From contig NZ_LMMA01000012.1 of the NCBI RefSeq assembly GCF_001422725.1, positions 242,967 to 306,966 on the forward strand: DNA of 64,000 nt, read 5' to 3'. The translations under genes and the position numbers were made by a program. Under the pieces are notes generated by a model, which worked only from the letters and a program-made list of their open reading frames with translations, did not search any database and had not been told where the DNA came from. Source of the DNA: Flavobacterium sp. Leaf82 (GTDB taxonomy: Bacteria; Bacteroidota; Bacteroidia; Flavobacteriales; Flavobacteriaceae). The stretch's first letter is position 1, and the number at the start of each line of letters is the position of its first letter. Below are positions 4,141 to 60,322 of this stretch, piece by piece.

Positions 4141-7100
4141 TTGTTTAAAAAATTTATTCTCCCATTTATCCTGTTTGGTTTTTTTACTCAGATTAATATC
4201 TGCGCACAACAAGGCAAAGTAGATCGTACATTTAATACACTCGATAACGGATTAAACGGAGATGGTTTCGATAAAACAATACGAACTTTATCATTGCAAT
4301 CAGATGACAAACTCATTGTTGGCGGTGATTATTTAAATCTTAACGGAATTCCAACTTCTTATCTAAGCCGATTAAAACCTGATGGAACCATTGACAATAG
4401 CTTTGATACAGGAACCGGTTTAAATGGTAAAGTTTACGATTCGTATATCCGGAATGAAGGAAAAATAATTGTAGCGGGAAGTTTTACTACTTATAACGGA
4501 AATAGCGCAGGAAGACTTATCCGTTTAAACGAAAATGGTTCACAGGATACAACATTTAATACTTCGACAGGAGCAACAAACGGAATCATTTATAAAGTTT
4601 GCCTTCAACCTGACGGAAAAATTATAATCGTAGGAAGTTTTACAAAATATAATAATGTTACCGTAAACAGAATTGCAAGACTTCTCTCAAACGGCGAATT
4701 AGATACCTCATTTATTACAGGTTCTGGTGCTGCTTTAAACATAACAAACGCTGAAATTTTACCTAATGCAAAAATTTTAATTTCGGGTAATTTTATATCA
4801 TTTAATGGTATTGCAGTAAATAGAATTGCACGACTTTTTCCAGACGGGAATGTAGATACAAGCTTTAATATTGGATCGGGATTTAACGATGATGTTAATG
4901 CCATGGCTTCGCAGCAAGATGGTAAAATTATATTGGGAGGGAAATTCACTGATTATAACGGAACCACATCAAATAGAATTATTCGGCTTAATGAAAACGG
5001 CACAATAGATAATAATTTTTTGGCAGGATCAGGTTTATCTGCAGATGTTGTTCAGGTTATTAAAACAGATCGTGATGGTAATATTATGGTGGGCGGATCT
5101 TTTAAAGGTTTTTATAATGGAACTGAGGTAAACCGGATATTTTTCCTGAATCCGGACGGAAGTATAAAACCAAACTTTGATATTGGTTCCGGGCCTGGTT
5201 CGGCATCAGTTTTGGCGCTGGCAAATGGCAAAGAAGGTTCGTGGTATTTAGCAGGTTCATTTTCGGTTTTTGATGGTCAGAATCAGGGAAGACTTGCAAA
5301 AGTAAATGCAGATGGAGAGCATGATACAGCATATTTATCAGCCGGAATTGGTTTTGATAATGCAGTGCAAAAAGTACTGTCATTAGAAGATAAAAAAACG
5401 ATGGTGTTTGGTAATTTTACTAAATTCAACGGTAGTCCAGCATCCCGAATAATTAGGCTTTTAGAAAACGGTTTGTCTGATGATACTTTTACTTCAGGAC
5501 AATCAGGAGCAAATAATCTTATAAAAACCGCAGTTTTACAATCAGATAAAAAGATAATTATAGGAGGAAACTTTACAAAATATAACGAAACAATTTCTAA
5601 TCGTATAGTTCGAATTTTACCAAACGGAGCAATCGATAACACATTTAATATAGGTTACGGGTTTAAAAGTCAGGTCTATGCAATTGTAATGCAAGATGAA
5701 AAGGTAATTGTAGCCGGAAATTTTACCACTTATAATGATACGCCTTCCGGAAGAATCGTGAGATTACTAAATGATGGTTCGCGTGATCCTGATTTTAACA
5801 CTGGACTTGGTGCTGATGCTATAATCGAAGCTGTTTTAATTCAGCCTGACGGAAAAATTCTCGTTGCAGGAAGATTTAATACTTTCAATGGTCAGCCATT
5901 TTCGCGTTTGGTTCGATTGAATTATAACGGAAGCATTGATTGGAGTTTTAATGTAGGGACTGGTTTTGATAAAATTGTATATGCAATAGCTTTACAATCT
6001 GATCATAAAATAATTGTTGGCGGATCTTTTTTAAGTTATAACGGATTATCTCAAAAACGAATTATAAGACTTAATACAAACGGTAGTTTAGATCCCGCTT
6101 TTGATTCTGGTATTGGTTTTAGCAATGGTGATGTTTTGAGTCTCTTAGTTCAGCCTGACGATCGAATTTTGGTTGGAGGAAGTTTTTCCGGAACATATAA
6201 TACCAATCCCTCTTTGCGATTAATACGTTTATTTCAATCCGGGAATTATGATGCATCTTTTCTGGCAGATCTTAATGGTAAACTTAATTCCATGAGTTTT
6301 ACATCAGATCAGAAACTTATGATTGGCGGAGATTTTAATTCGATATCAGGAATTTCGAAACATAGAATTGCACGCCTGAAACTTTGCCTGGAAGCTACAA
6401 TGTGGAATAGTGTTTCCTGGTCAAATGGTTTCCCGTCAGGCGGAAAAGAATTAATCTTTAAAGCAGATTATCCCAATTTAATGACCGCAGATGTTTGTAG
6501 TTGTACAATTGATGAAGGAAAGGCAGTAACGCTTTTAAGTGGTAATACCTTAAGTCTGGAATTTGATTATTCAGGATTAGGAACCTTAGTTTTAGAAGAT
6601 TCAGCAAGTTTATATCAGTCAGATGATGATATATTAAACACAGGAATTGTTCATGCAAAAAGAAAATCATCTCCTATTTTAAGGTTCGATTATACTTATT
6701 GGTCATCTCCAGTTGAGAATCAGAAATTGGCTGATGTTTCTCCCAATACATTACCTGACAAATTTTTTTCTTTTGATTATGATTTAGGAAATTGGAAAGA
6801 GGAAAATCCGTCGCACATTATGATACCCGCAAAAGGATATATTATTCGTGGACCTCAGGACTTTTCGACAACAGTTTCATCAAAATTTGAAGCCACATTT
6901 AAAGGAATTCCAAACAACGGAAAAGTCATTTTGAATTTGGGAGGTATTGACATTTTCAACTTAATAGGAAATCCGTATCCATCATCTTTAGATGCTGATC
7001 TCTTCTTGTTAGAAAATAAATCAAACTTAAAAGGAGCGCTTTACTTCTGGACGCATAATACACCATATTTAAATAATCAATATTCCTCAGATGATTATGC

Positions 7101-7992
7101 CGTTTACAATTTGCTTGGAGGTGTTGGTACCAGAGGATCTTTATCAAAAGGCGTTAATGAAACAGAACCTAACGGAACGATTGCTTCCGGTCAGGCTTTT
7201 TTTATAGCAAGTAAAAATTCCGGCACTTTAGAGTTTAATAATAGTATGAGAATTCAGGGAAAAAATGCAACTTTTTTTAAACCCGGAAAAGAAAATAATA
7301 CTTCTGCAAACGAAATTAAAAGGCATCGTATCTGGTTGAATTTTGAAAACAAGCAAGGAATCTTTAAGCAAATTTTATTGGGTTATATTCAGGGAGCAAC
7401 AAATTTATATGATGAAGATTATGATGCGCAATCTTTTAACGGTAATAAATATGCAGATTTTTATAGTATAATCGAAAATGAAAATTTGGTTATTCAGGCA
7501 CGTGCTTTGCCATTTATAGACACAGATCAGATTCTATTGGGATATAAAACAGCAATTGCCGGAGAATTTACTATTTCGATAGACAAAACAGATGGTGATA
7601 TGAGCAATCAGCCTATTTATATCGAAGATAAAACTACCGGAATTGTTCATGATTTAACAAATAGCAATTACAGTTTTACAACCCAGATTGGGAATTTTAC
7701 AGATCGATTTGTGCTAAGATATACAGATATAACGTTAGGAAATAAAGACTTTGAAAACCTTGAAAATGATATTTTAGTTGCTGTAAAAAACAAAACAATC
7801 AAAATAGTGTCATTAAAGCAAAATATCAGAGAAGTCGCTATTTTTGATATTACAGGAAAATTGCTTTACAATAAAAAGAAAGTTGAAAATACAGAACTTT
7901 CTATTCAAAACGTATCATCAGAAAGTCAGGTATTAGTAGTAAAGGTAATTTTAGAAAATGAATTTATGACAACCAGAAAAATTATATTTTAG
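4141..7992 (+). CDS. Delta-60 repeat beta-propeller protein with T9SS type C sorting signal
   Basis: The 1,283-residue secreted protein starts at TTG; the first residues form a clean signal peptide (hydrophobic FILPFILFGFF, then CAQQ), which supports that start. Residues ~30-740 contain about a dozen and a half copies of the Delta-60 repeat (pattern DGKI.VGG.F..YNG....R..RL..DG..D..F), expected to fold as one or more beta-propellers. The C-terminal half (~750-1283) repeats the module layout of the preceding gene, including the motifs [29 protein letters not shown] and ALPF.D.D...LGY, and ends in a T9SS type C signal (VILENEFMTTRKIIF). The two genes are neighbours in the same direction but a strong terminator separates them. 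The function is unknown; a surface-attached or released binding protein is likely. Confidence 0.88.
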   Translation: MFKKFILPFILFGFFTQINICAQQGKVDRTFNTLDNGLNGDGFDKTIRTLSLQSDDKLIVGGDYLNLNGIPTSYLSRLKPDGTIDNSFDTGTGLNGKVYDSYIRNEGKIIVAGSFTTYNGNSAGRLIRLNENGSQDTTFNTSTGATNGIIYKVCLQPDGKIIIVGSFTKYNNVTVNRIARLLSNGELDTSFITGSGAALNITNAEILPNAKILISGNFISFNGIAVNRIARLFPDGNVDTSFNIGSGFNDDVNAMASQQDGKIILGGKFTDYNGTTSNRIIRLNENGTIDNNFLAGSGLSADVVQVIKTDRDGNIMVGGSFKGFYNGTEVNRIFFLNPDGSIKPNFDIGSGPGSASVLALANGKEGSWYLAGSFSVFDGQNQGRLAKVNADGEHDTAYLSAGIGFDNAVQKVLSLEDKKTMVFGNFTKFNGSPASRIIRLLENGLSDDTFTSGQSGANNLIKTAVLQSDKKIIIGGNFTKYNETISNRIVRILPNGAIDNTFNIGYGFKSQVYAIVMQDEKVIVAGNFTTYNDTPSGRIVRLLNDGSRDPDFNTGLGADAIIEAVLIQPDGKILVAGRFNTFNGQPFSRLVRLNYNGSIDWSFNVGTGFDKIVYAIALQSDHKIIVGGSFLSYNGLSQKRIIRLNTNGSLDPAFDSGIGFSNGDVLSLLVQPDDRILVGGSFSGTYNTNPSLRLIRLFQSGNYDASFLADLNGKLNSMSFTSDQKLMIGGDFNSISGISKHRIARLKLCLEATMWNSVSWSNGFPSGGKELIFKADYPNLMTADVCSCTIDEGKAVTLLSGNTLSLEFDYSGLGTLVLEDSASLYQSDDDILNTGIVHAKRKSSPILRFDYTYWSSPVENQKLADVSPNTLPDKFFSFDYDLGNWKEENPSHIMIPAKGYIIRGPQDFSTTVSSKFEATFKGIPNNGKVILNLGGIDIFNLIGNPYPSSLDADLFLLENKSNLKGALYFWTHNTPYLNNQYSSDDYAVYNLLGGVGTRGSLSKGVNETEPNGTIASGQAFFIASKNSGTLEFNNSMRIQGKNATFFKPGKENNTSANEIKRHRIWLNFENKQGIFKQILLGYIQGATNLYDEDYDAQSFNGNKYADFYSIIENENLVIQARALPFIDTDQILLGYKTAIAGEFTISIDKTDGDMSNQPIYIEDKTTGIVHDLTNSNYSFTTQIGNFTDRFVLRYTDITLGNKDFENLENDILVAVKNKTIKIVSLKQNIREVAIFDITGKLLYNKKKVENTELSIQNVSSESQVLVVKVILENEFMTTRKIIF

Positions 7993-8006
7993 AAATAATA
8001 AAACAT

Positions 8007-8046
8007 AAAAAGCAGTTACGGTTTTACACCAGAGACTGCTTTTTTG
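8007..8046. terminator. Bidirectional terminator between convergent genes
   Basis: The AAAAAGCAGT / ACTGCTTTTTT stem with an 18-nt loop lies between the Delta-60 gene (+) and the cupin gene (-). A/T runs on both sides allow termination in both directions. Confidence 0.8.
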
Positions 8047-8047
8047 A

Positions 8048-8929
8048 TTAAGAGACCTTTCTTAAAAAAGTCTTTTCTAAATTTTCATGTGTATTCCTGA
8101 TTGCTTTTTCGTTCTTATAATCAATCCATTTCTGACCTTTAAACTTTCGCATTAAAATATCAAAATGACGCATTATAAAAACATTATAAGCAGCTTTAGA
8201 TAAATTGGCAATACTTTTAGGGAAAGCGCGCAAACTCATCGAGAAACCAGGCGTTAAATACTTCATATAATGCCAATAACCTTCCGGCATATATAACATT
8301 TCACCATGTTTGAGATTCGTAATATATCCTTCGGCATTTTTAAGGGCAGGGAATTTTTCATAATCCGGATTATCAAAATCAATGTCTTCCCTTGAAATTA
8401 AAGCATGCGGAACCTTATACATATATTTAGATTGGTCAGGAGCAAAAATCATACATTGTTTTTCTCCATGAAAATGAAAATGAAGTATGTTCGAGTAATC
8501 AATATCATAATGCATAAATACTCTGGCATTTTGACCACCAAAAAACAACATAGGCATTTGCTTGACTAATTTAAGTCCAATATCAGGCCATAAAAAGTCA
8601 TTTCTAAGCACAGGCACTTGTTTCATTAGATTATAAAGAAAAATGCGGTAATTTGTAGGTTTAGATTCTAAAAGAGAGATATAGTCACTCATTTTCATTC
8701 TCTTGTGCGCTTCATTAAAACCTTCTTCATGATTCACAGGTCTGTCATCATATAATGGTACTGTGATATCACCTGCAATATCATTAATATATGATAATTT
8801 CCATTTATGGTAAGCAGGCCAGTCTTCGGTCAACTCTTCCACAACAACTGGAATTTGTTTTTTTACATATCGGGAAATAAAATCGGATTTTGAGATTTTT
8901 TTTACCCTTTCAATTTGCGTTAATTTCAT
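8048..8929 (-). CDS. JmjC/cupin_8-type Fe(II)/2-oxoglutarate oxygenase-like protein
   Basis: The 293-residue cytoplasmic protein has the cupin-like JmjC fold. The expected iron ligands are visible as H140-x-D142 (MHYDID) and H220 (YWHYMKY), followed by the small-residue strand GFSMSLRAF. The N-terminal part (PVVVEELTEDWPA, residues ~27-39) is the usual opening of cupin_8 proteins. Family members hydroxylate protein side chains or small molecules, but the substrate here cannot be told from sequence. It lies downstream of bioB in the same direction, separated from it by a good terminator, so it probably has its own promoter, although I do not see a clean TAnnTTTG box. Confidence 0.85.
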   Translation of the reverse strand: MKLTQIERVKKISKSDFISRYVKKQIPVVVEELTEDWPAYHKWKLSYINDIAGDITVPLYDDRPVNHEEGFNEAHKRMKMSDYISLLESKPTNYRIFLYNLMKQVPVLRNDFLWPDIGLKLVKQMPMLFFGGQNARVFMHYDIDYSNILHFHFHGEKQCMIFAPDQSKYMYKVPHALISREDIDFDNPDYEKFPALKNAEGYITNLKHGEMLYMPEGYWHYMKYLTPGFSMSLRAFPKSIANLSKAAYNVFIMRHFDILMRKFKGQKWIDYKNEKAIRNTHENLEKTFLRKVS

Positions 8930-27185: not shown

Positions 27186-28982
27186 TTAGTCATTCAATTT
27201 CAAAACAGCCATAAAAGCTTCTTGAGGAATTTCAACGTTTCCTACTTGTCTCATACGTTTTTTACCTTTTTTCTGTTTTTCAAGAAGTTTACGCTTACGC
27301 GAAATATCTCCACCGTAACATTTTGCGGTAACGTCTTTACGAAGTGCTTTAATCGTTTCACGAGCAATAATTTTTGCCCCGATTGCAGCTTGAATCGGAA
27401 TATCAAATTGTTGTCTTGGGATTAACTCACGTAATTTCTCGGTCATTTTTTTACCAATATTATACGCATTGTCTTCGTGAATTAATGCAGAAAGTGCATC
27501 AACCGTTTGAGCATTCAAAAGAACATCCAGTTTTACTAATTTTGAAGTTCTCATTCCTATAGGAGAGTAATCAAAAGAAGCATAACCTTTAGAAACTGTT
27601 TTTAGGCGATCATAAAAATCGAATACAATTTCTGCCAGCGGCATATCAAAATTCAATTCAACACGTTCTGTAGTCAAATACGTTTGGTTGGTAATTTGAC
27701 CACGTTTTTCGATACATAAACTCATTACGTTTCCAACAAAGTCAGATTTTGTAATGATTGTTGCTTTAATATATGGTTCTTCAACTCTGTCTAAACGAGA
27801 TGGTTCAGGCAAGTCAGAAGGATTGTTTACAATAAAAGGAACTTCTGGTTCTTTTTTGGTATAAGCTAAATACGAAACGTTAGGAACCGTAGTAATTACA
27901 GTCATATCGAACTCACGCTCTAAACGTTCCTGGATAATTTCCATGTGAAGCATTCCTAAGAATCCACAACGGAAACCAAATCCTAAAGCCGCAGAACTTT
28001 CAGGAGTAAAAACTAGCGAAGCATCATTCAATTGCAATTTCTCCATAGAAGAACGCAAATCTTCATAATCTTCAGTATCTACAGGATAAATTCCGGCAAA
28101 TACCATTGGTTTTACATCCTCAAAACCAGTAATCATATTAGTTGTAGGCGTTTTAGCATCCGTTAGCGTATCACCAACTTTTACTTCTTTGGCTTCTTTA
28201 ATTCCAGAAATTAAATATCCAACATCACCTGCAGAAATTACATTTTTAGGAACCTGATTTAATTTCAACGTTCCAATTTCGTCAGCAAAATATTCATTGC
28301 CAGTAGCCATGAATTTAATTTTTTGCCCTTTTCTAATTTCTCCATTTACAACTCTAAAAATTACTTCGATTCCACGAAACGGATTGTAATGCGAGTCGAA
28401 AATCAAAGCTTGTAATGGTTCATCCACATTTCCTGACGGAGGTGGAATTTTTTCGATAATGGCAGCCAAAATATTTTCGACACCAAAACCTGTTTTTCCA
28501 GATGCATGAATAATATCTTCTAATTTACATCCCAATAAATCGATAATATCGTCACTAACCTCTTCCGGATTAGCACTTGGTAAATCAACTTTATTCAAAA
28601 CCGGAATAATTTCCAGGTCATTCTCTAAAGCAAGATATAAGTTAGAAATTGTTTGTGCCTGAATACTTTGTGCAGCATCAACGATCAAAAGCGCACCTTC
28701 GCAGGCAGCAATAGATCGGGAAACTTCGTATGAAAAGTCAACGTGACCAGGAGTGTCAATTAAATTTAAAATATATTCTTCTCCTTTATAAGTATATTCC
28801 ATTTGAATGGCATGACTCTTAATGGTGATTCCACGCTCACGCTCCAGATCCATGTTGTCAAGCAATTGTGCTTTTTCTTCACGAGCTGTAACGGTTTGTG
28901 TAGCGCCCAATAATCGGTCTGCCAATGTACTTTTACCGTGGTCAATGTGTGCAATAATGCAAAAGTTACGTATCTTCTTCAT
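27186..28982 (-). CDS. lepA: Elongation factor 4 (LepA)
   Basis: Ribosome-binding GTPase that acts on translation and ribosome assembly. The 598-residue, full-length protein has G1 AHIDHGKST, switch [14 protein letters not shown]3 [12 protein letters not shown] and G4 LNKVD, followed by domain II, domains III and V with the LepA-specific FCGFRCG-type segment (here [16 protein letters not shown]), and the unique C-terminal domain (~490-598) with basic [24 protein letters not shown]. The promoter lies ~90 bp upstream (29074-29081). Confidence 0.98.
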
Positions 28983-29073
28983 TTTAATATATCAATTCTC
29001 TAAGCGAGTTTTAAGTAATTTCAGGGTATAAATTTGCGCTGCAGCAATTGCTTTAGAGCAGGTTATTAAGGCG

Positions 29074-29081
29074 CAAAGATA
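29074..29081 (-). promoter_or_regulatory. Probable lepA -7 box
   Basis: TATCTTTG followed by CGCC on the minus strand; it would give a leader of about 85 nt. Confidence 0.5.
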
Positions 29082-29481
29082 GCGCAAAGTTTTGGATTCT
29101 GGAATGTAGTTGTTCGATTTTGAATTTTGAGGACATAAAGCCGTTTCAAATAGGCTAATAAACTCGTAATTCATTTATAATCAAGAGGCCACTTAATATC
29201 AAAAACTTAAAGAATGTTTTCTTTACAGCGTCAATTAAGGCAGTTGATTATTAAAAAAAAGACTGAAATTACTTTTGATTGAAAGATCTGTATTTTTTGT
29301 GCGAATAATTGTCGATTTGGCAGAATATAACTATACTTGTAGTCATTATAACTATAAGTGTAATCGATTTATAGTGTTGCTTTTTAGTGACTTTTCCTGA
29401 AGAATCTATGCGCAGGATTTATTTAAGAAAGGAATCTAAGAAGAGTGTTTATTTTTTATTAATAATTAAATCAAACAAATT
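29082..29481. promoter_or_regulatory. Gene-free upstream region of the orphan peptide gene, with a dyad at 29335-29359
   Basis: No coding region is supported here. ACTTGTAGT (29335-29343) and ACTATAAGT (29351-29359) form an imperfect dyad with a 7-bp spacer; a third TTATAGTGT lies at 29370-29377. The same half-sites stand in front of xylB (31500-31546). The ~120 bp between the dyad and the ATG at 29482 contain no clear TAnnTTTG box. Confidence 0.5.
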
Positions 29482-29691
29482 ATGAAAAAACAAACCATGC
29501 AGCTGGCCGAAAAATTTGGCAGGCTGTCAAACGATGAAATGAAAAATATTATGGGCGGCGTAACTCCCGTTGGCCGATTTACTGTTCCTAAAAGCATTTG
29601 CGCTTCTGGTTACGGATTAGTGGCAACTGGCTGTCAGGGATCTTCGTATCCTATGCTCGACGGTTACACTTGTGTTCTTACCTGTTTGTAA
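29482..29691 (+). CDS. Double-glycine-leader peptide (putative bacteriocin/RiPP precursor)
   Basis: The 69-residue peptide has a leader of the Bacteroidetes kind, LSNDEMKNIMGG, with cleavage expected after Gly26. The 43-residue core that follows is rich in Gly/Ser/Thr and has four cysteines (C40, C51, C64, C68). Such leaders are recognised by peptidase-containing ABC transporters, and many precede lanthipeptides or other modified peptides. No dehydratase, cyclase, radical SAM enzyme, ATP-grasp enzyme or C39 peptidase transporter lies in the window, so this is an orphan precursor. It is followed by its own terminator. Confidence 0.75.
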   Translation: MKKQTMQLAEKFGRLSNDEMKNIMGGVTPVGRFTVPKSICASGYGLVATGCQGSSYPMLDGYTCVLTCL

Positions 29692-29708
29692 TCAGATCTA
29701 AAGAGCAT

Positions 29709-29743
29709 AAAAAAAGAGGCAGTCTCAATAGATTGCCTTTTTG
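29709..29743 (+). terminator. Terminator after the peptide gene
   Basis: GGCAGTCT (29718-29725) pairs with AGATTGCC (29730-29737) around CAAT, one G-U pair, then TTTTTG. Confidence 0.82.
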
Positions 29744-29746
29744 TTT

Positions 29747-30481
29747 TTAAAACTCGAAATTAAATCCTCTTTCGGTTAACTTCTTGTAGATTTCAGGATC
29801 AAACTTATATAGTTTAGCAGCTCTGTGCGATACATCTTGTTGTTTTTCATCGAGAGCAACAAGTAGTTTCATATGCAGAATTTTTCTTCTAAAATTAGAT
29901 TTGTCCAATTCAATTCCTAATATTTCTTCATAAAGATGCATCAATTGTAACAAAGTAAATTTTTCCGGCAAGAGATTAAAACCAATCGGAGCTTGTCGAA
30001 CGCGATTGCGCAATTGCTGTAAACTAAATTCCAGAATTTCGTTATGATCAAAAATCAAATCAGGAACATCTTCAATCTTGTGCCATTTTGCTTCAATTAC
30101 AGAAACGCTTGCCTGAATATTATAATCTTCCCTGTTTACCAAAGTATAGTAACCAACGGTAATAACTCTTTCGGTTTTTACACGATCCGGATCTGTAAAT
30201 GCTTTTAATTGCTCCAGAAAAATATTGTCGAGACTGGTAAGTTCATATAATATTCGAAGTGCTGCATTATCCAGGCTTTCTTCCAGATATAAATTTCCTC
30301 CCAGAAGTCCCCATTTTCCAATACTTGCTCCTTCGGCATGTTGTACTAACAGCACTTCAAGGTTTTTTTTATCAAAAGAAAATATAGCACAGTCAATCGA
30401 AATGCCGTCTATAACTGATTTTGAACCTCTGGTTATTATAGTAGTAGTTTGCGGAATATTTTGCGGTGATGAAAAAGTCAT
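29747..30481 (-). CDS. NrtR-like Nudix-domain transcriptional regulator, copy 2
   Basis: The 244-residue protein has a Nudix-fold N-terminal domain (~25-155) and a C-terminal winged-helix region (~158-244). The Nudix box is degenerate: G62, E68, R76 and E80 remain, but the other catalytic glutamates are replaced (I77, L81) and the box glycine is S83, so hydrolase activity is unlikely. The C-terminal 86 residues differ from those of the upstream paralogue at only four positions. Its ATG overlaps the stop of that gene (TAATG), which indicates translational coupling. In Bacteroides, the Nudix-type regulator AraR represses arabinose genes; a pentose-sensing role is inferred from that and from the divergent xylBA genes. 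Confidence 0.85.
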   Translation of the reverse strand: MTFSSPQNIPQTTTIITRGSKSVIDGISIDCAIFSFDKKNLEVLLVQHAEGASIGKWGLLGGNLYLEESLDNAALRILYELTSLDNIFLEQLKAFTDPDRVKTERVITVGYYTLVNREDYNIQASVSVIEAKWHKIEDVPDLIFDHNEILEFSLQQLRNRVRQAPIGFNLLPEKFTLLQLMHLYEEILGIELDKSNFRRKILHMKLLVALDEKQQDVSHRAAKLYKFDPEIYKKLTERGFNFEF

Positions 30482-31197
30482 TAAAATTCGAAGTTAAATC
30501 CCTTTTCGGTCAATTTATTGTAAATGTCAGGATCAAACTTATACAATTTTGCAGCCCTGTGAGAGACATCCTGTTGTTTTTCGTCTAAGGCAACTAATAA
30601 TTTCATGTGCAGAATTTTTCTTCTAAAATTAGATTTGTCCATTTCTATTCCCAGAATCTCTTCGTATAAATGCATCAATTGCAATAAAGTAAATTTTTCC
30701 GGCAATAAATTAAATCCAATAGGTGCCTGACGAACCCTGTTTTGAAGGTGTTTCAGGCTATATGCTAAAATTTCGTTATGGTCATAAATCAAATCCGGAA
30801 TACTATTTATTTTATACCATTTTGCATCAGATGCCGTAAAACCTGCCTTAATATTATAATCTTCTCTTTTTACCAAAGCATAATAACCAATCGTAATAAC
30901 ACGACGAAGCGGGAAACGATCCGGATCTCCAAATGCTTTCAATTGCTCTAAGTAAATATTATCAAGACCTGTAAGTTCGTTCAATAATCGGTGAGCAGCA
31001 TTATCTGTACTTTCCTTTTTGTAAATCCAACCTCCCGGAAGTCCCCATTTTCCTTTACTGATTCCTTCTCCGTGTTGTACTAAAAGCACTTCAAGACTTC
31101 CTTTATCAAAACCAAATATGACACAGTCAATCGTGATCGCGTTCATTGCGGTTTGCTCGCTTTTTAAAGCTGAATCGTCGGATACATTTTTAACCAT
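30481..31197 (-). CDS. NrtR-like Nudix-domain transcriptional regulator, copy 1
   Basis: The 238-residue paralogue of the following gene is first in a two-gene operon and divergent from xylB. The Nudix box keeps G56, E62, R70, E74 and G77 but has Leu at 71 and 75 in place of the metal-binding glutamates; this points to a ligand sensor and not an enzyme. The N-terminal half is clearly different from its partner while the C-terminal winged helix is almost the same. The simplest reading is two regulators with a common operator but different effectors. It is the nearest regulator gene to the xyloglucan locus. Confidence 0.87.
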   Translation of the reverse strand: MVKNVSDDSALKSEQTAMNAITIDCVIFGFDKGSLEVLLVQHGEGISKGKWGLPGGWIYKKESTDNAAHRLLNELTGLDNIYLEQLKAFGDPDRFPLRRVITIGYYALVKREDYNIKAGFTASDAKWYKINSIPDLIYDHNEILAYSLKHLQNRVRQAPIGFNLLPEKFTLLQLMHLYEEILGIEMDKSNFRRKILHMKLLVALDEKQQDVSHRAAKLYKFDPDIYNKLTEKGFNFEF

Positions 31198-31586
31198 ATG
31201 CTATTTAAATTTTGACAAATTAAATAAATTAAATGAATACTAGCCTTGATAAAAGCTTTATATTTTTTTTAACGCAACAATTTTCTGACAATCAATCATT
31301 TGGAATTCTGCTAAAAATGCCATTCTAAAATATTAATTCTTAATTGGCTGATTGTCAAATTGCTAATTCATTATTTTTTTGATATTTTTTTATTCCATTT
31401 AGAACCATATTTTATTGTATTCATAAAAATGAAGTTCCTATTATCAGAATTGAAAAAAAATAACCCTAATATTTTGTTAATATAGAAAAAATGTTTTACA
31501 CTTGTAGTCAAATTAACCATAAGATAAGTTCGTTTTGACTATAAGTTTAAAAGGACAAATCTATAACTAACTTAAAATACCACCAA
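31198..31586. promoter_or_regulatory. Divergent control region between Nudix regulators and xylB, with candidate operators
   Basis: No gene is seen. ACTTGTAGTCAAA (31500-31512) and its near-inverse TTTGACTATAAGT (31534-31546) form a dyad with a 21-bp spacer, ~40-85 bp before the xylB ATG. A second inverted pair, TGACAATCA (31286-31294) and TGATTGTCA (31349-31357), lies nearer the regulators. No perfect TAnnTTTG box is visible towards xylB, which would suit an activated or weak promoter. Confidence 0.55.
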
Positions 31587-33080
31587 ATGTTTTTTTTAGG
31601 AATTGATTTAGGAAGCTCTTCGATAAAATTATCAGTGTTCGATCCTGAAAAAGGAGTCACTATTGGAGCTGTTAGCGTTCCTGATTTTGAAATGCCAATT
31701 ATTGCCCCAAAATTTGGCTGGGCAGAACAAGATCCTGAATCGTGGTGGCAATTTGTAAAAGACGGAATCAAACAATTGGGTGCAAAATCTGATATTGATT
31801 TAAAAAAGATTGCCGGAATTGGGATTGCCTATCAAATGCATGGTTTGGTTTTAACCGATGAAAATTTAAACCCCGTTCGTTCTTCGATTATTTGGTGCGA
31901 CAGTCGTGCAGCCATTATTGGAGACGAAATTTATACTAAAATCGGAGCTGAAAATTGTCAGCAGCAAATTTTAGGAAGTCCCGGAAACTTTACCGCTTCA
32001 AAACTAAAATGGGTAAAAGAAAATCAGCCTGAAGTTTTTGCAAAAGCAAAATATATGATGCTTCCCGGTGATTTTATTGCTGCGAAATTATCAAAAGTGG
32101 CTCAAATAAGTACTTCGGGATTATCAGAAGCAGCTTTATGGAATTTCTCAGAAGGAAAACTGGCAACCGAAATTCTTTCTCAAATGGGATTATCTGCAGA
32201 TATTGTTCCCGAAATTGTTTCAAATTTTGGAATCCAGGCTACAATTCACGCCGATATTGCAAACGAATTAGGACTTAATCCTGATGCAAAAATAACATAC
32301 AGAGCCGGAGATCAACCTAACAATGCTTTGTCATTGAATGTTTTGAAACCCGGAGAAATCGCTACAACAGCCGGAACTTCGGCAGTAGTTTATGCCGTAA
32401 GCGATCAGGATGCTTATGACAAACAAAACAGAATCAATACTTTTTTACACGTCAATAATACGAAAGTCGAAAAACGAAACGGCGTAATGCTGTGCATTAA
32501 TGGTTCAGGAATTTTATACCAATGGTTGCGAAAAATCATATCGGTTGACAGAGCTGAGTTAATTGCGTACGAGAAACTAAATGCCGAAGCTGCAAAAGTA
32601 GACGCAGGAAGTAACGGACTTCGTTTTTACCCTTTCGGAAATGGTGTAGAAAGAATCTTCAACAATAAAAATGCGACTTCAGGAATCCAGAATTTAAACT
32701 TCAATATACATCAGCCGTCACATTTGGTGCGCGCTGCCTGCGAAGGAATTGTGTTTGCCATGAATTATGGTTTTGATGTAATGAAGGAAACAGGAGTTTC
32801 AGGAACTGTGGTTCGCGCCGGAAATTCGAACTTGTTTCTAAGTCCGGTTTTCAGGGAAATCTTTACCAATACAACCCAAACAACTTTAGAATTATACAAT
32901 ACATCCGGTGCCGAAGGTGCTGCAAGAGGAGCAGCTTACGGATACGGTTTTTACAATTCGCTGGACGAAGCTTTTCAGGGATTGCAATGTTTAGACAGAA
33001 TTGAACCAAACAAAATCCTGACATCTCAATATCAGGATTTATATCAGGAATGGAAAAATCAAATTAAAATAGAACAATAA
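31587..33080 (+). CDS. xylB: Xylulokinase
   Basis: Phosphorylates D-xylulose to xylulose-5-phosphate. The 497-residue FGGY-family kinase has the N-terminal ATPase motif [17 protein letters not shown], the substrate motif [11 protein letters not shown] (the MHG signature of xylulokinases), the second phosphate site [10 protein letters not shown] and the C-terminal [14 protein letters not shown]. It is the first gene of the 14-gene locus and ends 2 bp before xylA, so the two are certainly co-transcribed. It processes xylose released by the downstream alpha-xylosidase and other enzymes. Confidence 0.95.
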
Positions 33081-33082
33081 TA

Positions 33083-34402
33083 ATGAGCACAACTAACGAA
33101 TATTTTAAAAACATCGATACAATTAAGTTCGAAGGTAGAGAAAGTGATAACCCATTAGCGTTTAAATGGTATGATGAAAATCGTATCGTAGCGGGAAAAA
33201 CTTTAAAAGAGCATTTGCGTTTTTCGATGGCATACTGGCACACGCTATGTAATACCGGAGGAGATCCGTTTGGAGCTTCGACTGAAACTTTTTCATGGGA
33301 TAAAAATGAAAATGCAATTTTAAGAGCCAAAGACAAAATGGATGCGGCTTTTGAATTCATGACTAAGTTAGGTTTGCCATATTATTGTTTTCATGATGTT
33401 GATGTGGTCGATGATGCACCAACATTAGCAGAATTCGAAACCCGTATTCAAACTATGGTTGAATATGCAAAACAAAAACAACAAGAATCAGGCATTAAAT
33501 TGTTGTGGGGAACTTCAAACTTATTCAGCAATCCGCGCTATATGAATGGTGCTGCTACAAACCCAAACTTTGATGTTTTGGCATATGCAGGAGCTCAGGC
33601 AAAAATCGCAATCGATGCAACTATTGCACTTGGCGGCGAAAATTATGTTTTCTGGGGAGGACGCGAAGGATATATGAGTTTGTTGAACACAGACATGAAA
33701 AGAGAATTGGACCATTTAGGAAGATTCCTGAATACGTGTAAAGATTATGCTCGTAAAGAAGGTTTTAAAGGAAACTTCCTGATCGAACCAAAACCAATGG
33801 AACCAACAAAACATCAATATGATTTTGATGCTGCGACTTCATTAGGTTTCATTAATAAATACGGACTTCAAAATGATTTTAAACTAAATCTTGAAGTAAA
33901 TCACGCAACGCTTGCCGGACACTCTTTTGAGCATGAATTGCAGGTTGCAGTTGATGCTGGAATGTTAGGAAGTATTGATGCAAACCGTGGAGATTACCAA
34001 AACGGTTGGGATACAGATCAATTCCCAATAAATCTTCAGGAAGTTACTCAGGCAATGTTAGTTATCCTTGAAGGTGGCGGAATTCAGGGTGGAGGAGTAA
34101 ACTTTGATGCAAAAGTGAGAAGAAATTCAATCGATTTAGAAGATAAATTCATAGCACACATTTCAGGAATGGATGTTTTTGCAAGAGGATTAATCTGCGC
34201 AGATCACATACTTCAAAATACAGATTACAGAAAATTACGCACGCAGCGTTACAGTTCATTTGACGGCGGAAACGGAGCGAAGTTCGAAAACGGAGAATTG
34301 TCTCTGGAAGATCTTAGTAAAATTGCCCGTGCAAGTGGAGAACCTCAACCACTTAGTGGAAGACAGGAATTATTCGAGCAAATTATTTCGAATGCATACT
34401 AA
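33083..34402 (+). CDS. xylA: Xylose isomerase
   Basis: Converts D-xylose to D-xylulose. The 439-residue class II enzyme shows HDVDVVDD, the first signature [17 protein letters not shown] with its catalytic and metal residues, [18 protein letters not shown] and the metal site [17 protein letters not shown]. It follows xylB after a 2-bp gap (TAATAATG) and precedes a TonB receptor by 49 bp. No xylose permease gene is present in the window. Confidence 0.98.
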
Positions 34403-47476: not shown

Positions 47477-49057
47477 ATGAAAAAATATTCAGCAATACTA
47501 TTTCTTTCATTACTTCTAATCAATGCAAAATTGATTGGACAAAATACTACTGCTGAAAACAGAACCATCAAAGTCGATTACAATAAAACAGCAGGAAAAC
47601 TGAACACCATGTTTAAAGAATGTATTGGCGCAGGAAGAGCAAACGAAGGTTTACGCGCAGATTGGCAACAACAATTGGCGATGACCAAAAAAGAATGCGA
47701 TTTTAAATACATCAGAATGCACGGTTTATTGTCTGATGATATGGCGGTTTATCGCGAAGACTCAAAAGGAAATCCCGAATATAATTACCAATATATCGAT
47801 GCTCTGTATGATTTTATATTGAGTATTAAAATGAAGCCTTTTGTAGAATTGGGTTTCATGCCATCGGCTTTAGCGAGCGGAAGTCAGACTATTTTCTGGT
47901 GGAAAGGAAATGTAACCCCTCCAAAAGATTATAAAAAATGGGAAGATTTAATTCGAAACTTAACCCATCATTTTACAGAACGTTACGGAGCCGAAGAAGT
48001 AAAAACATGGTATTTTGAAGTTTGGAACGAACCCAATTTATCTCCGGGTTTCTGGACAGGAACTCAGGCAGAATATTTTAAACTATATGAGTACGCAGCT
48101 CACGGAATCAAAAGCGTAAATTCGGCTTACAAAATAGGCGGTCCCGCAACTGCAGGAGCGGCGTGGGTTCCGGAAACAATTGAATTTTGTGCTAAAAACA
48201 ATGTTCCGTTAGATTTTATATCTACACATACTTACGGCGTAAAACAAGGATTTCTGGATGAATTTGGAACTTCGGGAACAATTCTGAATAAAGACGAATC
48301 GAGTATAAGCGGCGACGTGATTAATTCCCGCAAACAAATTTCAAATTCGGCTAAGCCAAAACTTGAATTGCATTATACAGAATGGAGCTCTTCTTATACT
48401 CCAGCAGATCCTGTTCATGACAGTTATCATTCTGCGGCTTATATTCTTCAAAAATTAAAACAAGTAGGCAATGCCGCAAACTCCATGTCATATTGGGTTT
48501 TCACTGATATATTTGAAGAAGCAGGTCCAAGATTTACCCCTTTTCACGGAGGATTTGGATTATTGAATACACAGGGAATCAAAAAACCGGCTTATTTTTC
48601 TTATTCTTTTTTGAATAAATTAGGAGAAACGGAACTTCAAAATAAAGACACCTCTTCCTGGGTAACCAAAAATTCAAAAGGAGATGTTCAGTTATTATTT
48701 TGGGATTTTACCAATACACATCCCGGAGATTCCATGAATAATCAAACCTATTATATTAAGGATTTACCATCAAAACCAAAAGGCAGTATAAAAATTGAAG
48801 TCGATGGTTTACAAAAAGGTAACTACACTTTAGAAATTTATAAAGTAGGTTATAAAGTCAATGATGCTTACGCCGATTATTTGGCAATGGGAAAACCAAG
48901 TCAATTATCACGAGAACAAGTAAAGAGTATAAAAGAAAAAAATAATGGTGCTTTGATCGCAACAGAAAAAGTAGCAATTAATGCAAAAGGAACTTTTAGC
49001 AAAGACTATAAAATCAGTGAAAATGATGTTGTATTGTTCAATTTTGTAAAGCAATGA
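47477..49057 (+). CDS. GH39 glycosidase, probable beta-xylosidase type
   Basis: The 526-residue exported enzyme has a signal peptide ending LIGQN. A TIM barrel carries acid/base E185 in FEVWNEPNLSPGFW and nucleophile E302 in LHYTEWSSSY, the clan GH-A pattern of GH39 xylosidases; FKYIRMHGLLSDDMAVY is the GH39 first-strand signature. A beta-sandwich follows (~400-526). GH39 acts on beta-xylosides, alpha-L-iduronides or related sugars. In this locus it could clip beta-linked xylose or arabinopyranose from substituted xyloglucan, or process xylan fragments; sequence alone does not decide. Confidence 0.88.
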   Translation: MKKYSAILFLSLLLINAKLIGQNTTAENRTIKVDYNKTAGKLNTMFKECIGAGRANEGLRADWQQQLAMTKKECDFKYIRMHGLLSDDMAVYREDSKGNPEYNYQYIDALYDFILSIKMKPFVELGFMPSALASGSQTIFWWKGNVTPPKDYKKWEDLIRNLTHHFTERYGAEEVKTWYFEVWNEPNLSPGFWTGTQAEYFKLYEYAAHGIKSVNSAYKIGGPATAGAAWVPETIEFCAKNNVPLDFISTHTYGVKQGFLDEFGTSGTILNKDESSISGDVINSRKQISNSAKPKLELHYTEWSSSYTPADPVHDSYHSAAYILQKLKQVGNAANSMSYWVFTDIFEEAGPRFTPFHGGFGLLNTQGIKKPAYFSYSFLNKLGETELQNKDTSSWVTKNSKGDVQLLFWDFTNTHPGDSMNNQTYYIKDLPSKPKGSIKIEVDGLQKGNYTLEIYKVGYKVNDAYADYLAMGKPSQLSREQVKSIKEKNNGALIATEKVAINAKGTFSKDYKISENDVVLFNFVKQ

Positions 49058-55023: not shown

Positions 55024-56526
55024 ATGAAAAAGATAATTTTTTTATTGATAGGCGTATTCTCACTTGCAATTAATGCACAGCAACAAAATATAAAAACAGG
55101 TGATGAATTTTATCAAAACCCAATATTCAGAGGAGACTATCCGGATCCGTCTATAATTAGAGATGGTGAGGATTATTATATTGTGCATTCTTCATTTAAT
55201 TATTATCCCGGACTATTAATATGGACTTCAAAAGATTTGGTAAATTGGAAACCGGTTACACACGCACTTCAAAAAAGTGTAGGATCAGTTTGGGCGCCTG
55301 ATTTAGTAAAATACAATAACAAATTTTACATCTATTTCCCTGCAAACGAAACCAATTATGTAGTTTGGGCAGATAACATCAACGGACCATGGAGTGATCC
55401 AGTTGATTTAAAAATTGGGAATATCGACCCCGGACATTTTACAGACGAAAAAGGAAATCGATATTTATATTTTAGTAATGGCGATTATGTGCCTTTGTCT
55501 AAAGATGGACTTTCAGTTTCCGGAACAGGCAAACATGTTTACGACGGATGGAAAATTCCTGTAGAATGGTCGATAGAATGTTTTTGTATGGAAGGACCAA
55601 AAGTATTAAAGCAAGGAAATTATTATTATCTAACGGTTGCCGAAGGCGGAACTGCGGGACCTGCTACAAGCCACATGGTGATTTCGGCAAGATCAAAATC
55701 GCCTTTAGGACCTTGGGAAAATTCTCCATACAATCCAATCTTAAGAACCAACGATAGTTCAGAAAAATGGTGGTCAAAAGGTCATGCCACATTAATTGAT
55801 GATGTAAACGGAAAATGGTGGATGGTTTTTCATGGTTATGAAAACGGATACTATAATATGGGTCGCCAAACGTTGCTACAACCTGTAGAATGGACAAATG
55901 ATGGCTGGTTTAAAAGTCCGGAAAACATCAAAACCGAACAACCAATAAAAAAACCGGCAGGAAAAACTTTAAAAACTAATTTTACACTTTCTGATACTTT
56001 TTCAGGTACTGAACTTGAGCCACAATGGCAATTTTTCGATCATTATGACGCTGAAAGATTTAAAGTCACCAAAGACGGAATTCAGATAAAAGCAAAAGGG
56101 AAAAACATTGGCGAAAGCTCTCCTTTATTATGTACACCATCTGATCATTCTTACACAGCAGAAGTTGAAGCCGAAATAGAAGGCAATGCCACAGCGGGAC
56201 TTATTCTGTTTTACGACAATAAACTTTATACCGGAATTGCTGCCGATAAAGACAATGTTTTAGCCATATTACGATCATGGCAGTTTCCAACTCAGAAAGG
56301 TGTAAACAAAGCGCATTTATTTCTTCGTTTAGAAAAGAAAGAACAACTTGTAAACATGTTTTACAGTATCGACGGAAAAGTTTGGATTAAGATTGAAAAC
56401 TCTGCAGAAGTATCATCATTTAATCATAATGTATTAAGCGGTTTCATGAGTCTTCGTTTAGGGCTTTCTTCAGTTGGTGAAGGTAAGGTTACATTCAAAA
56501 ATTTCATTTATAAAGCGACAAATTAA
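55024..56526 (+). CDS. GH43 glycosidase, beta-xylosidase/alpha-L-arabinofuranosidase type
   Basis: The 500-residue exported enzyme has signal peptide MKKIIFLLIGVFSLAINAQ. A five-bladed propeller (~30-320) has general base D41 (GDYPDPSIIRDG), the pKa-setting Asp in NIDPGHF (D135) and acid E190 (CMEGPKV). A C-terminal concanavalin-like beta-sandwich (~335-498) follows, as in the two-domain xylosidases and arabinofuranosidases. It starts 8 bp after the acetylesterase. The most likely task is release of arabinose from arabinoxyloglucan side chains, or xylose from oligosaccharides. Confidence 0.92.
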   Translation: MKKIIFLLIGVFSLAINAQQQNIKTGDEFYQNPIFRGDYPDPSIIRDGEDYYIVHSSFNYYPGLLIWTSKDLVNWKPVTHALQKSVGSVWAPDLVKYNNKFYIYFPANETNYVVWADNINGPWSDPVDLKIGNIDPGHFTDEKGNRYLYFSNGDYVPLSKDGLSVSGTGKHVYDGWKIPVEWSIECFCMEGPKVLKQGNYYYLTVAEGGTAGPATSHMVISARSKSPLGPWENSPYNPILRTNDSSEKWWSKGHATLIDDVNGKWWMVFHGYENGYYNMGRQTLLQPVEWTNDGWFKSPENIKTEQPIKKPAGKTLKTNFTLSDTFSGTELEPQWQFFDHYDAERFKVTKDGIQIKAKGKNIGESSPLLCTPSDHSYTAEVEAEIEGNATAGLILFYDNKLYTGIAADKDNVLAILRSWQFPTQKGVNKAHLFLRLEKKEQLVNMFYSIDGKVWIKIENSAEVSSFNHNVLSGFMSLRLGLSSVGEGKVTFKNFIYKATN

Positions 56527-59493: not shown

Positions 59494-59952
59494 ATGACTT
59501 ACAATCCAACAACAGTCGCTAATTATTTCATAGATAAATATTCCAAAACGGGAAATCTTACGCCAATGAAAATAATTAAGCTAACATATATTGCTTATGG
59601 CTGGTATTTGGCTTTGACAGACAAAAAAGAAAGATTGCTTGATGAAAGTCCTATTGCCTGGGATTTTGGACCTGTTTTTCCATCTCTTTATTATAGTATA
59701 AAACAATACAAAAAAGAGAAGATTACAGAGAAAATTCCGAATGCGATAAAAGATGAAAAAATAACCAGCGAAGACGAGAAATTTTTAGATAAAATATGGG
59801 AAGTCTACGGGAGATTTGACGGTATTTATTTAAGTGCCTTAACGCATAATGACGGTACGCCGTGGAGAAAAGTATACCGCAAAGATTCGAATGCTCTTAT
59901 TTCTGATGATGATATTTTTGAACATTATAAAACTAAGTTAAAACCAATTTAA
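59494..59952 (+). CDS. Panacea (SocA-like, DUF4065) domain protein, putative antitoxin
   Basis: The 152-residue protein is made almost wholly of a Panacea domain: NYFIDKYSKTGNLTPMKIIKLTYIAYGWYLA, split over residues 11-41, then SPIAWDFGPVFPSLYYSIKQY and LTHNDGTPWRKVY, the family's end motif. Panacea proteins include SocA, a ClpXP adaptor antitoxin of Caulobacter, and the PanA antitoxins that neutralise very different toxins. Seven base pairs downstream follows a small membrane protein in the same direction. The pair has its own promoter and lies between a terminator and an opposing gene, as expected for a self-contained module. Confidence 0.85.
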   Translation: MTYNPTTVANYFIDKYSKTGNLTPMKIIKLTYIAYGWYLALTDKKERLLDESPIAWDFGPVFPSLYYSIKQYKKEKITEKIPNAIKDEKITSEDEKFLDKIWEVYGRFDGIYLSALTHNDGTPWRKVYRKDSNALISDDDIFEHYKTKLKPI

Positions 59953-59959
59953 ACTTATT

Positions 59960-60322
59960 ATGTCCTCCCTAAATCTAAATCAAATTTCAATTACAAATAG
60001 TTCTTCATTAACTCCTGAAGACCTAAGTAAAGCGCGTTTACAAAATCAAATCCTTGAGGACAGATTAGGAAATGCAAAAGTGGGCCGTTTTTTAGAAGAT
60101 ACAAGACTTAGAAGGCATTTAACCTATATTTTTGCCGGTATTATTTTTCTTTGGCTGGCTTCTGTTGTATCGGTTTTGTATTTTAATGATAATTTACTTC
60201 ATCTCAATCTTTCAGAAAATGTATTGATTACATTGCTGACAACTTCGTCTGTAAATGTAATAGGAATGATGTTGATTATTTTGAAAAATTTATTTCCAAA
60301 ACCACTGCATGACGACGAATAG
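59960..60322 (+). CDS. Small two-helix membrane protein, candidate toxin of the Panacea pair
   Basis: The 120-residue protein has an N-terminal ~50-residue soluble part with a charged helix (DLSKARLQNQILEDRLGNAKVGRFLEDTRLRRHL, residues ~21-54), then two membrane helices (~55-76 and ~88-110) joined by a short loop, and a short charged tail. No known domain is recognised. It follows the Panacea gene after 7 bp. Experimentally tested Panacea systems include toxins that are small membrane proteins and depolarise the cell; that is the precedent for this reading. A phage or defence accessory role is an alternative. Confidence 0.65.
   Translation: MSSLNLNQISITNSSSLTPEDLSKARLQNQILEDRLGNAKVGRFLEDTRLRRHLTYIFAGIIFLWLASVVSVLYFNDNLLHLNLSENVLITLLTTSSVNVIGMMLIILKNLFPKPLHDDE

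What the first reader, a model, noticed from the sequence alone, without database searches (positions are those of the whole stretch)
29482..29691. Orphan double-glycine peptide with four cysteines
Leader LSNDEMKNIMGG and a 43-residue core with cysteines at core positions 14, 25, 38 and 42. No maturation or export gene lies within 29 kb on the left or 34 kb on the right. It could use a distant transporter, or be a signalling peptide controlled with the sugar locus.
Basis: partly seen in the sequence, partly recalled or inferred. Interest (0 to 1): 0.58.

Follow-up and report, generated by a model that had tools for sequence, protein, structure and literature searches.

The report
Xylose-controlled orphan secreted peptide, Flavobacterium
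A bacterium of the genus Flavobacterium carries a small export-tagged peptide gene with four cysteines that has no export gene beside it but appears to be switched on together with its xylose-eating genes, which hints at a short-range weapon or signal released while it feeds on plant sugars.

Summary
In detail: 29482-29691 is a real gene for a 69-aa double-glycine precursor (26-aa leader, 43-aa core, Cys at core 14, 25, 38, 42). I found it in sixteen Flavobacterium genomes, always between lepA and NrtR-family regulator genes; the core is under strong purifying selection (pN/pS 0.045). It is an orphan in its window, but the genome has two C39-ABC exporters, one beside a VKOR-type protein whose C39-like stretch lacks the catalytic residues.

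The new result is its control. A 23-bp semipalindrome, CTTRTRGTYA-N3-TRACYAYAAG, overlaps the peptide promoter and recurs before xylulokinase; these are the only two exact sites in the 5.67-Mb genome. Both sites are kept in 16 of 16 carriers. In other Flavobacterium the motif often precedes xylose or xylosidase genes. Two AraR/NrtR-type regulator genes lie between the sites. The peptide is therefore probably a member of a pentose-responsive regulon.

The cassette is patchy: 23 of 25 non-carrier loci examined have an empty 161-165 bp gap and one keeps a remnant. Two core types sit at the same place and do not follow the lepA tree.

Most likely: a xylose-induced, disulfide-bonded, bacteriocin-like peptide exported in trans. 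Activity is inferred, not shown.

The parts
29482..29691 (+). double-glycine precursor peptide gene, 69 aa, core type A
29482..29559 (+). leader, 26 aa, ending in GG; 58% identical to the leader of a peptide encoded beside VKOR and C39-ABC genes (L075)
29560..29688 (+). core, 43 aa, Cys at 14, 25, 38, 42
29309..29339 (+). Flavobacterium-type promoter: TTG (29309-29311), 20 nt, TATACTTG (29332-29339, one base off TAnnTTTG); conserved in orthologs
   Evidence: the role of the upstream TTG is recalled
29336..29358 (.). operator-like semipalindrome CTTGTAGTCATTATAACTATAAG overlapping the -7 box
29713..29742 (+). intrinsic terminator-like hairpin with T-run
29747..30481 (-). NrtR2: AraR/NrtR-family regulator (NUDIX + winged helix)
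30481..31197 (-). NrtR1: AraR/NrtR-family regulator; its DNA-binding part is 82/86 identical to that of NrtR2
31501..31523 (.). second operator-like site CTTGTAGTCAAATTAACCATAAG, before xylB
31587..33080 (+). xylulokinase-like XylB (FGGY kinase; best NCBIfam model TIGR01312, below its cut-off)
33083..34402 (+). xylose isomerase XylA (over the TIGR02630 cut-off)

Best explanation
This is a self-contained cassette (promoter, operator, double-glycine precursor, terminator) lying between lepA and the NrtR-family regulator genes of the xylose locus. Without pentose, an AraR-like NrtR repressor sits on the operator over the -7 box of the peptide promoter; xylose (or a related pentose) releases it, so the peptide is made together with XylB and XylA. 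The precursor is then handled in trans by a hub elsewhere in the genome. A VKOR-type protein with a C39-like stretch that has lost its catalytic residues would bind the leader and oxidise the core to two disulfides; a C39-ABC exporter would cut after GG and export it with its HlyD-like partner. The product would be a 43-aa bacteriocin-like peptide acting on related Bacteroidota that compete for the same plant sugar. Shown by computation: the gene, its conservation, the shared motif, presence of the hub genes, two core types. Inferred: repressor identity, pentose response, trans export, disulfides, antibacterial action.
For: Operator: two matches in the window, both perfect, against 0.00 in shuffles; two perfect sites in the whole genome; both places kept in 16 of 16 carrier loci; 23-bp block 93% conserved against 71% and 64% in the spacers on either side; with at most one mismatch 88 of 398 genus genomes have it, reversed control 0; of 40 loci with it that I fetched, 16 have xylB beside it, 3 a GH43 and 2 a GH39 ortholog. 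Regulators: AraR is the nearest solved structure of both; BtAraR binds 21-bp semipalindromic sites and is released by L-arabinose (PMC4666351, passages). Export: C39 in 13 of 13 carriers of the genus sample; P0002 homologs in the same 13 of 13; P0002 keeps CXXC pairs and loop cysteines but not the C39 Cys and His (four-sequence alignment; which residues are catalytic is recalled); leader kinship to peptides beside VKOR-type proteins. Bacteriocin-like features: GG leader, 43-aa core, four Cys, as in bacteroidetocins (PMC6671954, passages); patchy presence and core types that cross the lepA tree, AU p 0.0003.
Against: C39 genes are also in 171 of 385 non-carriers and P0002 homologs in 2 of 3 non-carriers tested, so the hub is not specific to carriers. 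The P0002 ortholog of G432 is interrupted by stops, though that genome has another VKOR-type gene. With up to 3 mismatches the reversed control pattern also gave 3 hits in the own genome, so only the perfect or one-mismatch sites carry weight. The operator is only the 37th best of 459 23-bp windows upstream; the 25 best all lie in the lepA promoter region. In 2 of 16 carriers the peptide site has two mismatches. Thirteen non-carriers have two or more sites too, at other genes. Carrier G400 lacks NrtR2. No immunity gene was noticed, but bacteroidetocin producers are sensitive to their own toxin (PMC8546649, passages). The structure prediction is poor (mean pLDDT 53.5) and says nothing on disulfides.
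Confidence: 0.5

Rival explanations
1. A secreted signal or recognition peptide (pheromone-like) rather than a killer: made when pentose is sensed, exported and read by relatives of the same core type. The two core types would be signal types.
For: Within each type the core is nearly invariant although synonymous sites differ at about 45%, while the types differ strongly; types swap across the lepA tree. Control by a nutrient sensor suits a signal.
Against: No receptor gene travels with it: the direct neighbours are lepA and the NrtR genes in 16 of 16. No pheromone family among the matches.
Confidence: 0.25
2. A modified RiPP (lanthipeptide or radical-SAM product) matured by a distant enzyme.
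For: Weak leader hits to NF038158 (class I lanthipeptide) and TIGR04149 (rSAM-modified), E 0.025 and 0.039, well below cut-off. The core holds Ser, Thr and Cys.
Against: No LanC-like gene in the genome (control rang in 2 of 14 genomes). The closest leader relatives have VKOR-type proteins as neighbours (only the L075 one was checked by Pfam). The LanB search is uninformative because its control rang nowhere; radical SAM maturases were not searched genome-wide.
Confidence: 0.1
3. A conserved small protein that is not exported; the GG is incidental and the peptide acts inside the cell in pentose metabolism.
For: Fixed place beside the pentose regulators and shared operator.
Against: Leader kinship to precursors encoded beside VKOR-type proteins and, in L075, a C39-ABC; both glycines invariant in 16 of 16; many genomes keep the regulators and operator without the peptide.
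Confidence: 0.1

Closest known systems
Bacteroidetocins (class IIf bacteriocins; PMC6671954, passages read)
   Same: Bacteroidota, double-glycine leader, core of about 42-48 aa with four cysteines in the best studied members; a thiol oxidoreductase and a C39-ABC exporter (here elsewhere in the genome).
   Different: Leader 26 aa instead of 15-16; no exporter, TM protein or oxidoreductase gene next to it; shared motif with xylose genes. Core similarity was not tested because their sequences were not on hand.
NrtR-family pentose regulons: BtAraR (BT0354) and predicted BtXylR (BT0791) (PMC4666351 and PMC3878776, passages read)
   Same: Same regulator family; semipalindromic operators of similar size before pentose genes; regulator encoded within the locus.
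   Different: Another motif; no secreted peptide is named as a target in the passages read; here two paralogs with nearly the same DNA-binding part.
NCBIfam bacteriocin-like leaders (NF047798 leader_Chryseo, TIGR01847)
   Same: Short leader ending in or near GG; the L075 relative reaches NF047798 at E 0.0024, 18 bits against a cut-off of 23.5; P0001 reaches TIGR01847 at E 0.083.
   Different: P0001 passes no curated cut-off.

Membership tests
Double-glycine (C39-processed) precursors | Leader ending in GG, related to leaders of peptides encoded beside C39-ABC or VKOR-type genes | tested here: met
   GG invariant in 16 of 16
Double-glycine (C39-processed) precursors | C39 exporter available in the genome | tested here: met
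   two C39-ABC genes
Double-glycine (C39-processed) precursors | Cleavage after GG and secretion | not testable with these tools
   needs mass spectrometry
Bacteroidetocins | Leader of 15-16 aa | tested here: not met
   26 aa against 15-16
Bacteroidetocins | Adjacent genes for a TM protein and a C39-ABC exporter | tested here: not met
   neighbours are lepA and NrtR genes
Bacteroidetocins | Small core with at least two, in the best studied four, cysteines | tested here: met
   type A 43 aa, type B 49-51 aa, four Cys each
Bacteroidetocins | Kills Bacteroidota through BamA | not testable with these tools
   needs bench work
NrtR/AraR-type pentose regulon | Regulator with NUDIX and NrtR/AraR winged-helix domains encoded in the locus | tested here: met
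NrtR/AraR-type pentose regulon | Shared semipalindromic site before pentose genes and the peptide, conserved across species | tested here: met
NrtR/AraR-type pentose regulon | Regulator binds the site and is released by the sugar | not testable with these tools
   needs EMSA
Class I lanthipeptide | LanC cyclase in the genome | tested here: not met
   control rang in 2 of 14 genomes, 1 over the cut-off
Class I lanthipeptide | LanB dehydratase in the genome | tested here: inconclusive
   control rang nowhere
TIGR04149 rSAM-modified RiPP | Score above curated cut-off | tested here: not met
   13.8 bits against 25

The most novel reading that the evidence does not exclude
A short-range competition or recognition peptide wired directly into a pentose regulon: the cell releases it only while it eats xylan-derived xylose, using a shared exporter and oxidase hub. 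The chromosomal slot beside the xylose regulators holds one of two alternative core types that are exchanged between species by recombination downstream of a common promoter and leader, so strains fall into two peptide types plus empty-slot strains.
Probability: 0.35. Interest if true: 0.75.

Novelty: new variant of a known kind. Interest (0 to 1): 0.6.

Why it matters
If right, it links feeding on a plant polymer to release of a secreted peptide through a sugar-sensing repressor. It gives an orphan precursor a testable inducer (xylose), a testable repressor and a testable exporter, and it suggests that one export hub serves several scattered orphan precursors, which gene-cluster mining based on neighbours would miss. 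The two core types at one slot offer a natural experiment on specificity.

Tried and rejected
Rejected: an ORF artefact (16 orthologs, purifying selection); a known phage or plasmid gene (no match among 72,556 plasmid or 50,697 phage records at E 0.01; in viral contigs 20 pattern matches, none a relative); a known RNA element (none at gathering score in 28900-31700); a LanC-dependent lanthipeptide.

Rows dropped before counting: in the family scan (299 genomes, one of them another Flavobacterium) 46 genomes had E <= 1 but, apart from the own one, the best was E 0.024 with stops inside. In the genus scan 71 of 398 had E <= 1; I kept the 13 at E <= 2.1e-6; the next was E 0.0044 with stops inside. 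A few weaker rows (L075-L078) were read as leader relatives by eye.

Led nowhere: AlphaFold2 of the precursor (mean pLDDT 53.5; no fold search made); profile search of solved structures with the peptide (best E 0.099); PADLOC (nothing for the peptide); literature on a VKOR/double-glycine system in Bacteroidota (0 papers with 4 of 6 terms) and on xylose and bacteriocins in F. johnsoniae (4 papers, listing only); a xylan paper whose XylR proved to be of another family (PMC12125979, passages); the LanB search (uninformative).

Weak points: the lepA tree is poorly resolved (10 of 38 inner branches starred, bootstrap not settled) and lepA can itself recombine; its non-carriers were picked from genomes with an operator hit, not at random, as were the 40 loci. 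The C39 association is confounded by clade and genome size. The leader profile contained two of the own genome's leaders, so its two best hits are by construction.

Full report
What is there. Window 29482-29691 (+) encodes a 26-aa leader, MKKQTMQLAEKFGRLSNDEMKNIMGG, and a 43-residue core with Cys at 14, 25, 38 and 42. The genome belongs to Flavobacterium (kinship), 5.67 Mb in 37 contigs, window on contig C12. The best curated family hits are leader models below cut-off; Pfam has nothing.

Conservation. Of 398 genus genomes (own included) 13 carry the gene at E <= 2.1e-6. A scan of named genomes gave nine loci: six are the same records as unnamed ones (equal contig lengths) and three are new (F. 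bizetiae, Flavobacterium sp. HTF, 'Flavobacteriaceae bacterium CRH'). That makes 16 carriers. In 16 of 16 the peptide lies divergent from lepA with an NrtR-type gene on its other side; 15 of 16 have nrtR2 then nrtR1, G400 only nrtR1 (the G388 copy was masked by an antisense ORF and located). A sample of 299 genomes of the family showed no credible relative outside the genus.

Two core types. Type A (window, F. johnsoniae CI04, HSC-32F16, F. nitrogenifigens, G406, G432) and type B (the other ten) share leader, promoter and place. All 16 have four core cysteines; three are in invariant columns, while the fourth is central in A (core 25) and near the start in B. This is what one would expect if one partner of a pair had moved, but pairing is inferred. 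Cores are very constrained within a type: pN/pS 0.045 in A (six sequences) and 0.080 in B (six of ten), pS 0.46 and 0.45; the leaders are less so, 0.13 and 0.42. The window's core is 76-88% identical in DNA to the five other type A copies and 22-53% to the eight type B copies compared, whereas just upstream (29360-29482) it is closer to the type B strain SLB02 (65-81%) than to CI04 (45-65%). On a lepA tree of 41 rows (16 carriers, 25 non-carriers) type A is rejected as one clade against type B (AU p 0.0003) and needs four changes; carrier status needs twelve. The tree is weakly resolved, so the number of events is rough.

Empty sites. In 25 non-carrier loci the gap between lepA and the next NrtR gene is 161-165 bp in 23, 209 in one and 332 in one. 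It is 764 bp in the window and 730-877 bp in the other 15 carriers, from the coordinates. The 332-bp case (G372, whose NrtR2 is 95% identical) keeps a scrap of the peptide start but neither operator nor core, so it looks like a deletion remnant. Gain by insertion is the simplest reading of the uniform empty sites, but direction was not tested.

Control. Alignment of the 16 upstream regions shows a conserved block: TTG, 20 nt, TATACTTG, close to the flavobacterial -7 consensus TAnnTTTG (PMC9723704, passages), merging into CTTGTAGTCATTATAACTATAAG. The block 29336-29358 is 93% conserved against 71% (29110-29290) and 64% (29359-29450) beside it; it ranks 37th of 459 23-bp windows, the 25 best all lying in the lepA promoter region. 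The same motif precedes xylB at 31501-31523. In the window both matches are perfect and shuffles gave 0.00. In the whole genome two sites are perfect and a third has 3 mismatches; the reversed control also gave 3 hits at that laxity, but 0 at one mismatch. Both sites are present in 16 of 16 carrier loci, each with 0-2 mismatches to CTTRTRGTYANNNTRACYAYAAG; where xylB is missing from the locus the second site lies before the SusC-like gene that follows. Across the genus 88 of 398 genomes have the motif with at most one mismatch, reversed control 0; 12 of 13 carriers have two sites at that stringency (G634's peptide site has two mismatches), and 13 non-carriers also have two or more. Of 40 loci that I picked and fetched, 25 show lepA, NrtR gene(s) and the motif in the same order; xylB lies beside the motif in 16 (9 of these 25 and 7 others); an ortholog of the window's GH43 gene (55024-56526) follows in 3 and of its GH39 gene (47477-49057) in 2 (families); three have none of these beside the motif, one of them an NrtR-like gene. 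So the motif marks a xylose/xylosidase regulon, and the peptide probably belongs to it.

Regulators. Both neighbours have NUDIX, NrtR winged-helix and AraR C-terminal domains and AraR (5bs6) as nearest solved structure, E 1e-52 and 5e-48. In the window they are 90/158 identical in the sensor part and 82/86 in the DNA-binding part; three other genomes gave 52-60% and 91-98%. Two sensors that read one operator is my inference. BtAraR is released from DNA by L-arabinose and only partly by D-xylose (PMC4666351, passages); which pentose acts here is unknown.

Export and oxidation. The genome has two C39-ABC genes and a third, borderline C39 match (22 bits, E 4.6e-4) that lies inside the VKOR-type gene. 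One locus (C1, L080) encodes that 519-aa protein (P0002), a 63-aa Cys-rich GG peptide, a 730-aa C39-ABC and a 430-aa protein that resembles HlyD by eye. P0002 has a VKOR domain (3.4e-9); its N-terminal stretch aligns with C39 domains but lacks their Cys and His, and it keeps two loop cysteines, a CVMC and a CEHC pair. Pfam names a thioredoxin domain only in the L075 relative. C39 is found in 13 of 13 carriers and 171 of 385 non-carriers; P0002 homologs in 13 of 13 carriers, interrupted in G432, and in 2 of 3 non-carriers tested. The closest leader relatives (four peptides in L075, L076 and L078, 50-58% identical) lie near such proteins (L075 by Pfam, the others by eye) and in L075 near a C39-ABC. 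A leader profile that contained two own leaders finds these two by construction and, independently, two tandem four-Cys GG peptides at C12:398 kb (E 2.7e-4, 7.9e-4) and a weak 68-aa one on C34 (E 0.49): several orphans, one hub. That the C39-like stretch reads leaders is inference.

Function. Size, cysteines, leader type and an oxidase resemble bacteroidetocins, whose producers are sensitive to their own toxin, so a missing immunity gene is no strong objection (PMC6671954; PMC8546649; passages only). But leader length and gene neighbourhood do not meet that family's description, so I do not file it there. Patchy presence and exchange of core types fit competition or recognition. I put the whole best explanation at one half and signalling at one quarter; these are judgements.

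Print status. In the searches made (open-licence PMC papers; listings plus the passages named) I saw no report of this peptide or of a secreted peptide in an NrtR pentose regulon. That is not proof of absence.

Noticed in passing
L080 (G000:C1), 6908-8467: VKOR-type protein with a C39-like stretch lacking Cys and His; possibly a leader-guided thiol oxidase. Homologs in 15 of 16 genomes tested.
   Followed up: partly
L193 4424-4839 (G000:C12 about 398 kb): Two tandem GG peptides with four cysteines each; no exporter was obvious by eye among the ORFs of the 10-kb stretch, which was not scanned for families.
   Followed up: no
window 29747-31197: Two NrtR paralogs with nearly identical DNA-binding parts but diverged sensor parts.
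   Followed up: partly
L126 (G372), gap between lepA and nrtR2: Apparent remnant of the peptide cassette in a relative: a scrap of the start region is kept, operator and core are gone.
   Followed up: partly
window 59494-60322: SocA/Panacea-domain protein followed by a 120-aa protein, possibly a toxin-antitoxin pair.
   Followed up: no
L075 5334-6164; similar by eye in L076 and L078: DUF6625 proteins (Pfam hit in L075) recur near GG peptides and VKOR-type proteins; role unknown.
   Followed up: no
G432:C1:1476091-1477643: The P0002 ortholog of this genome is interrupted by stop codons; another VKOR-type gene exists there.
   Followed up: no
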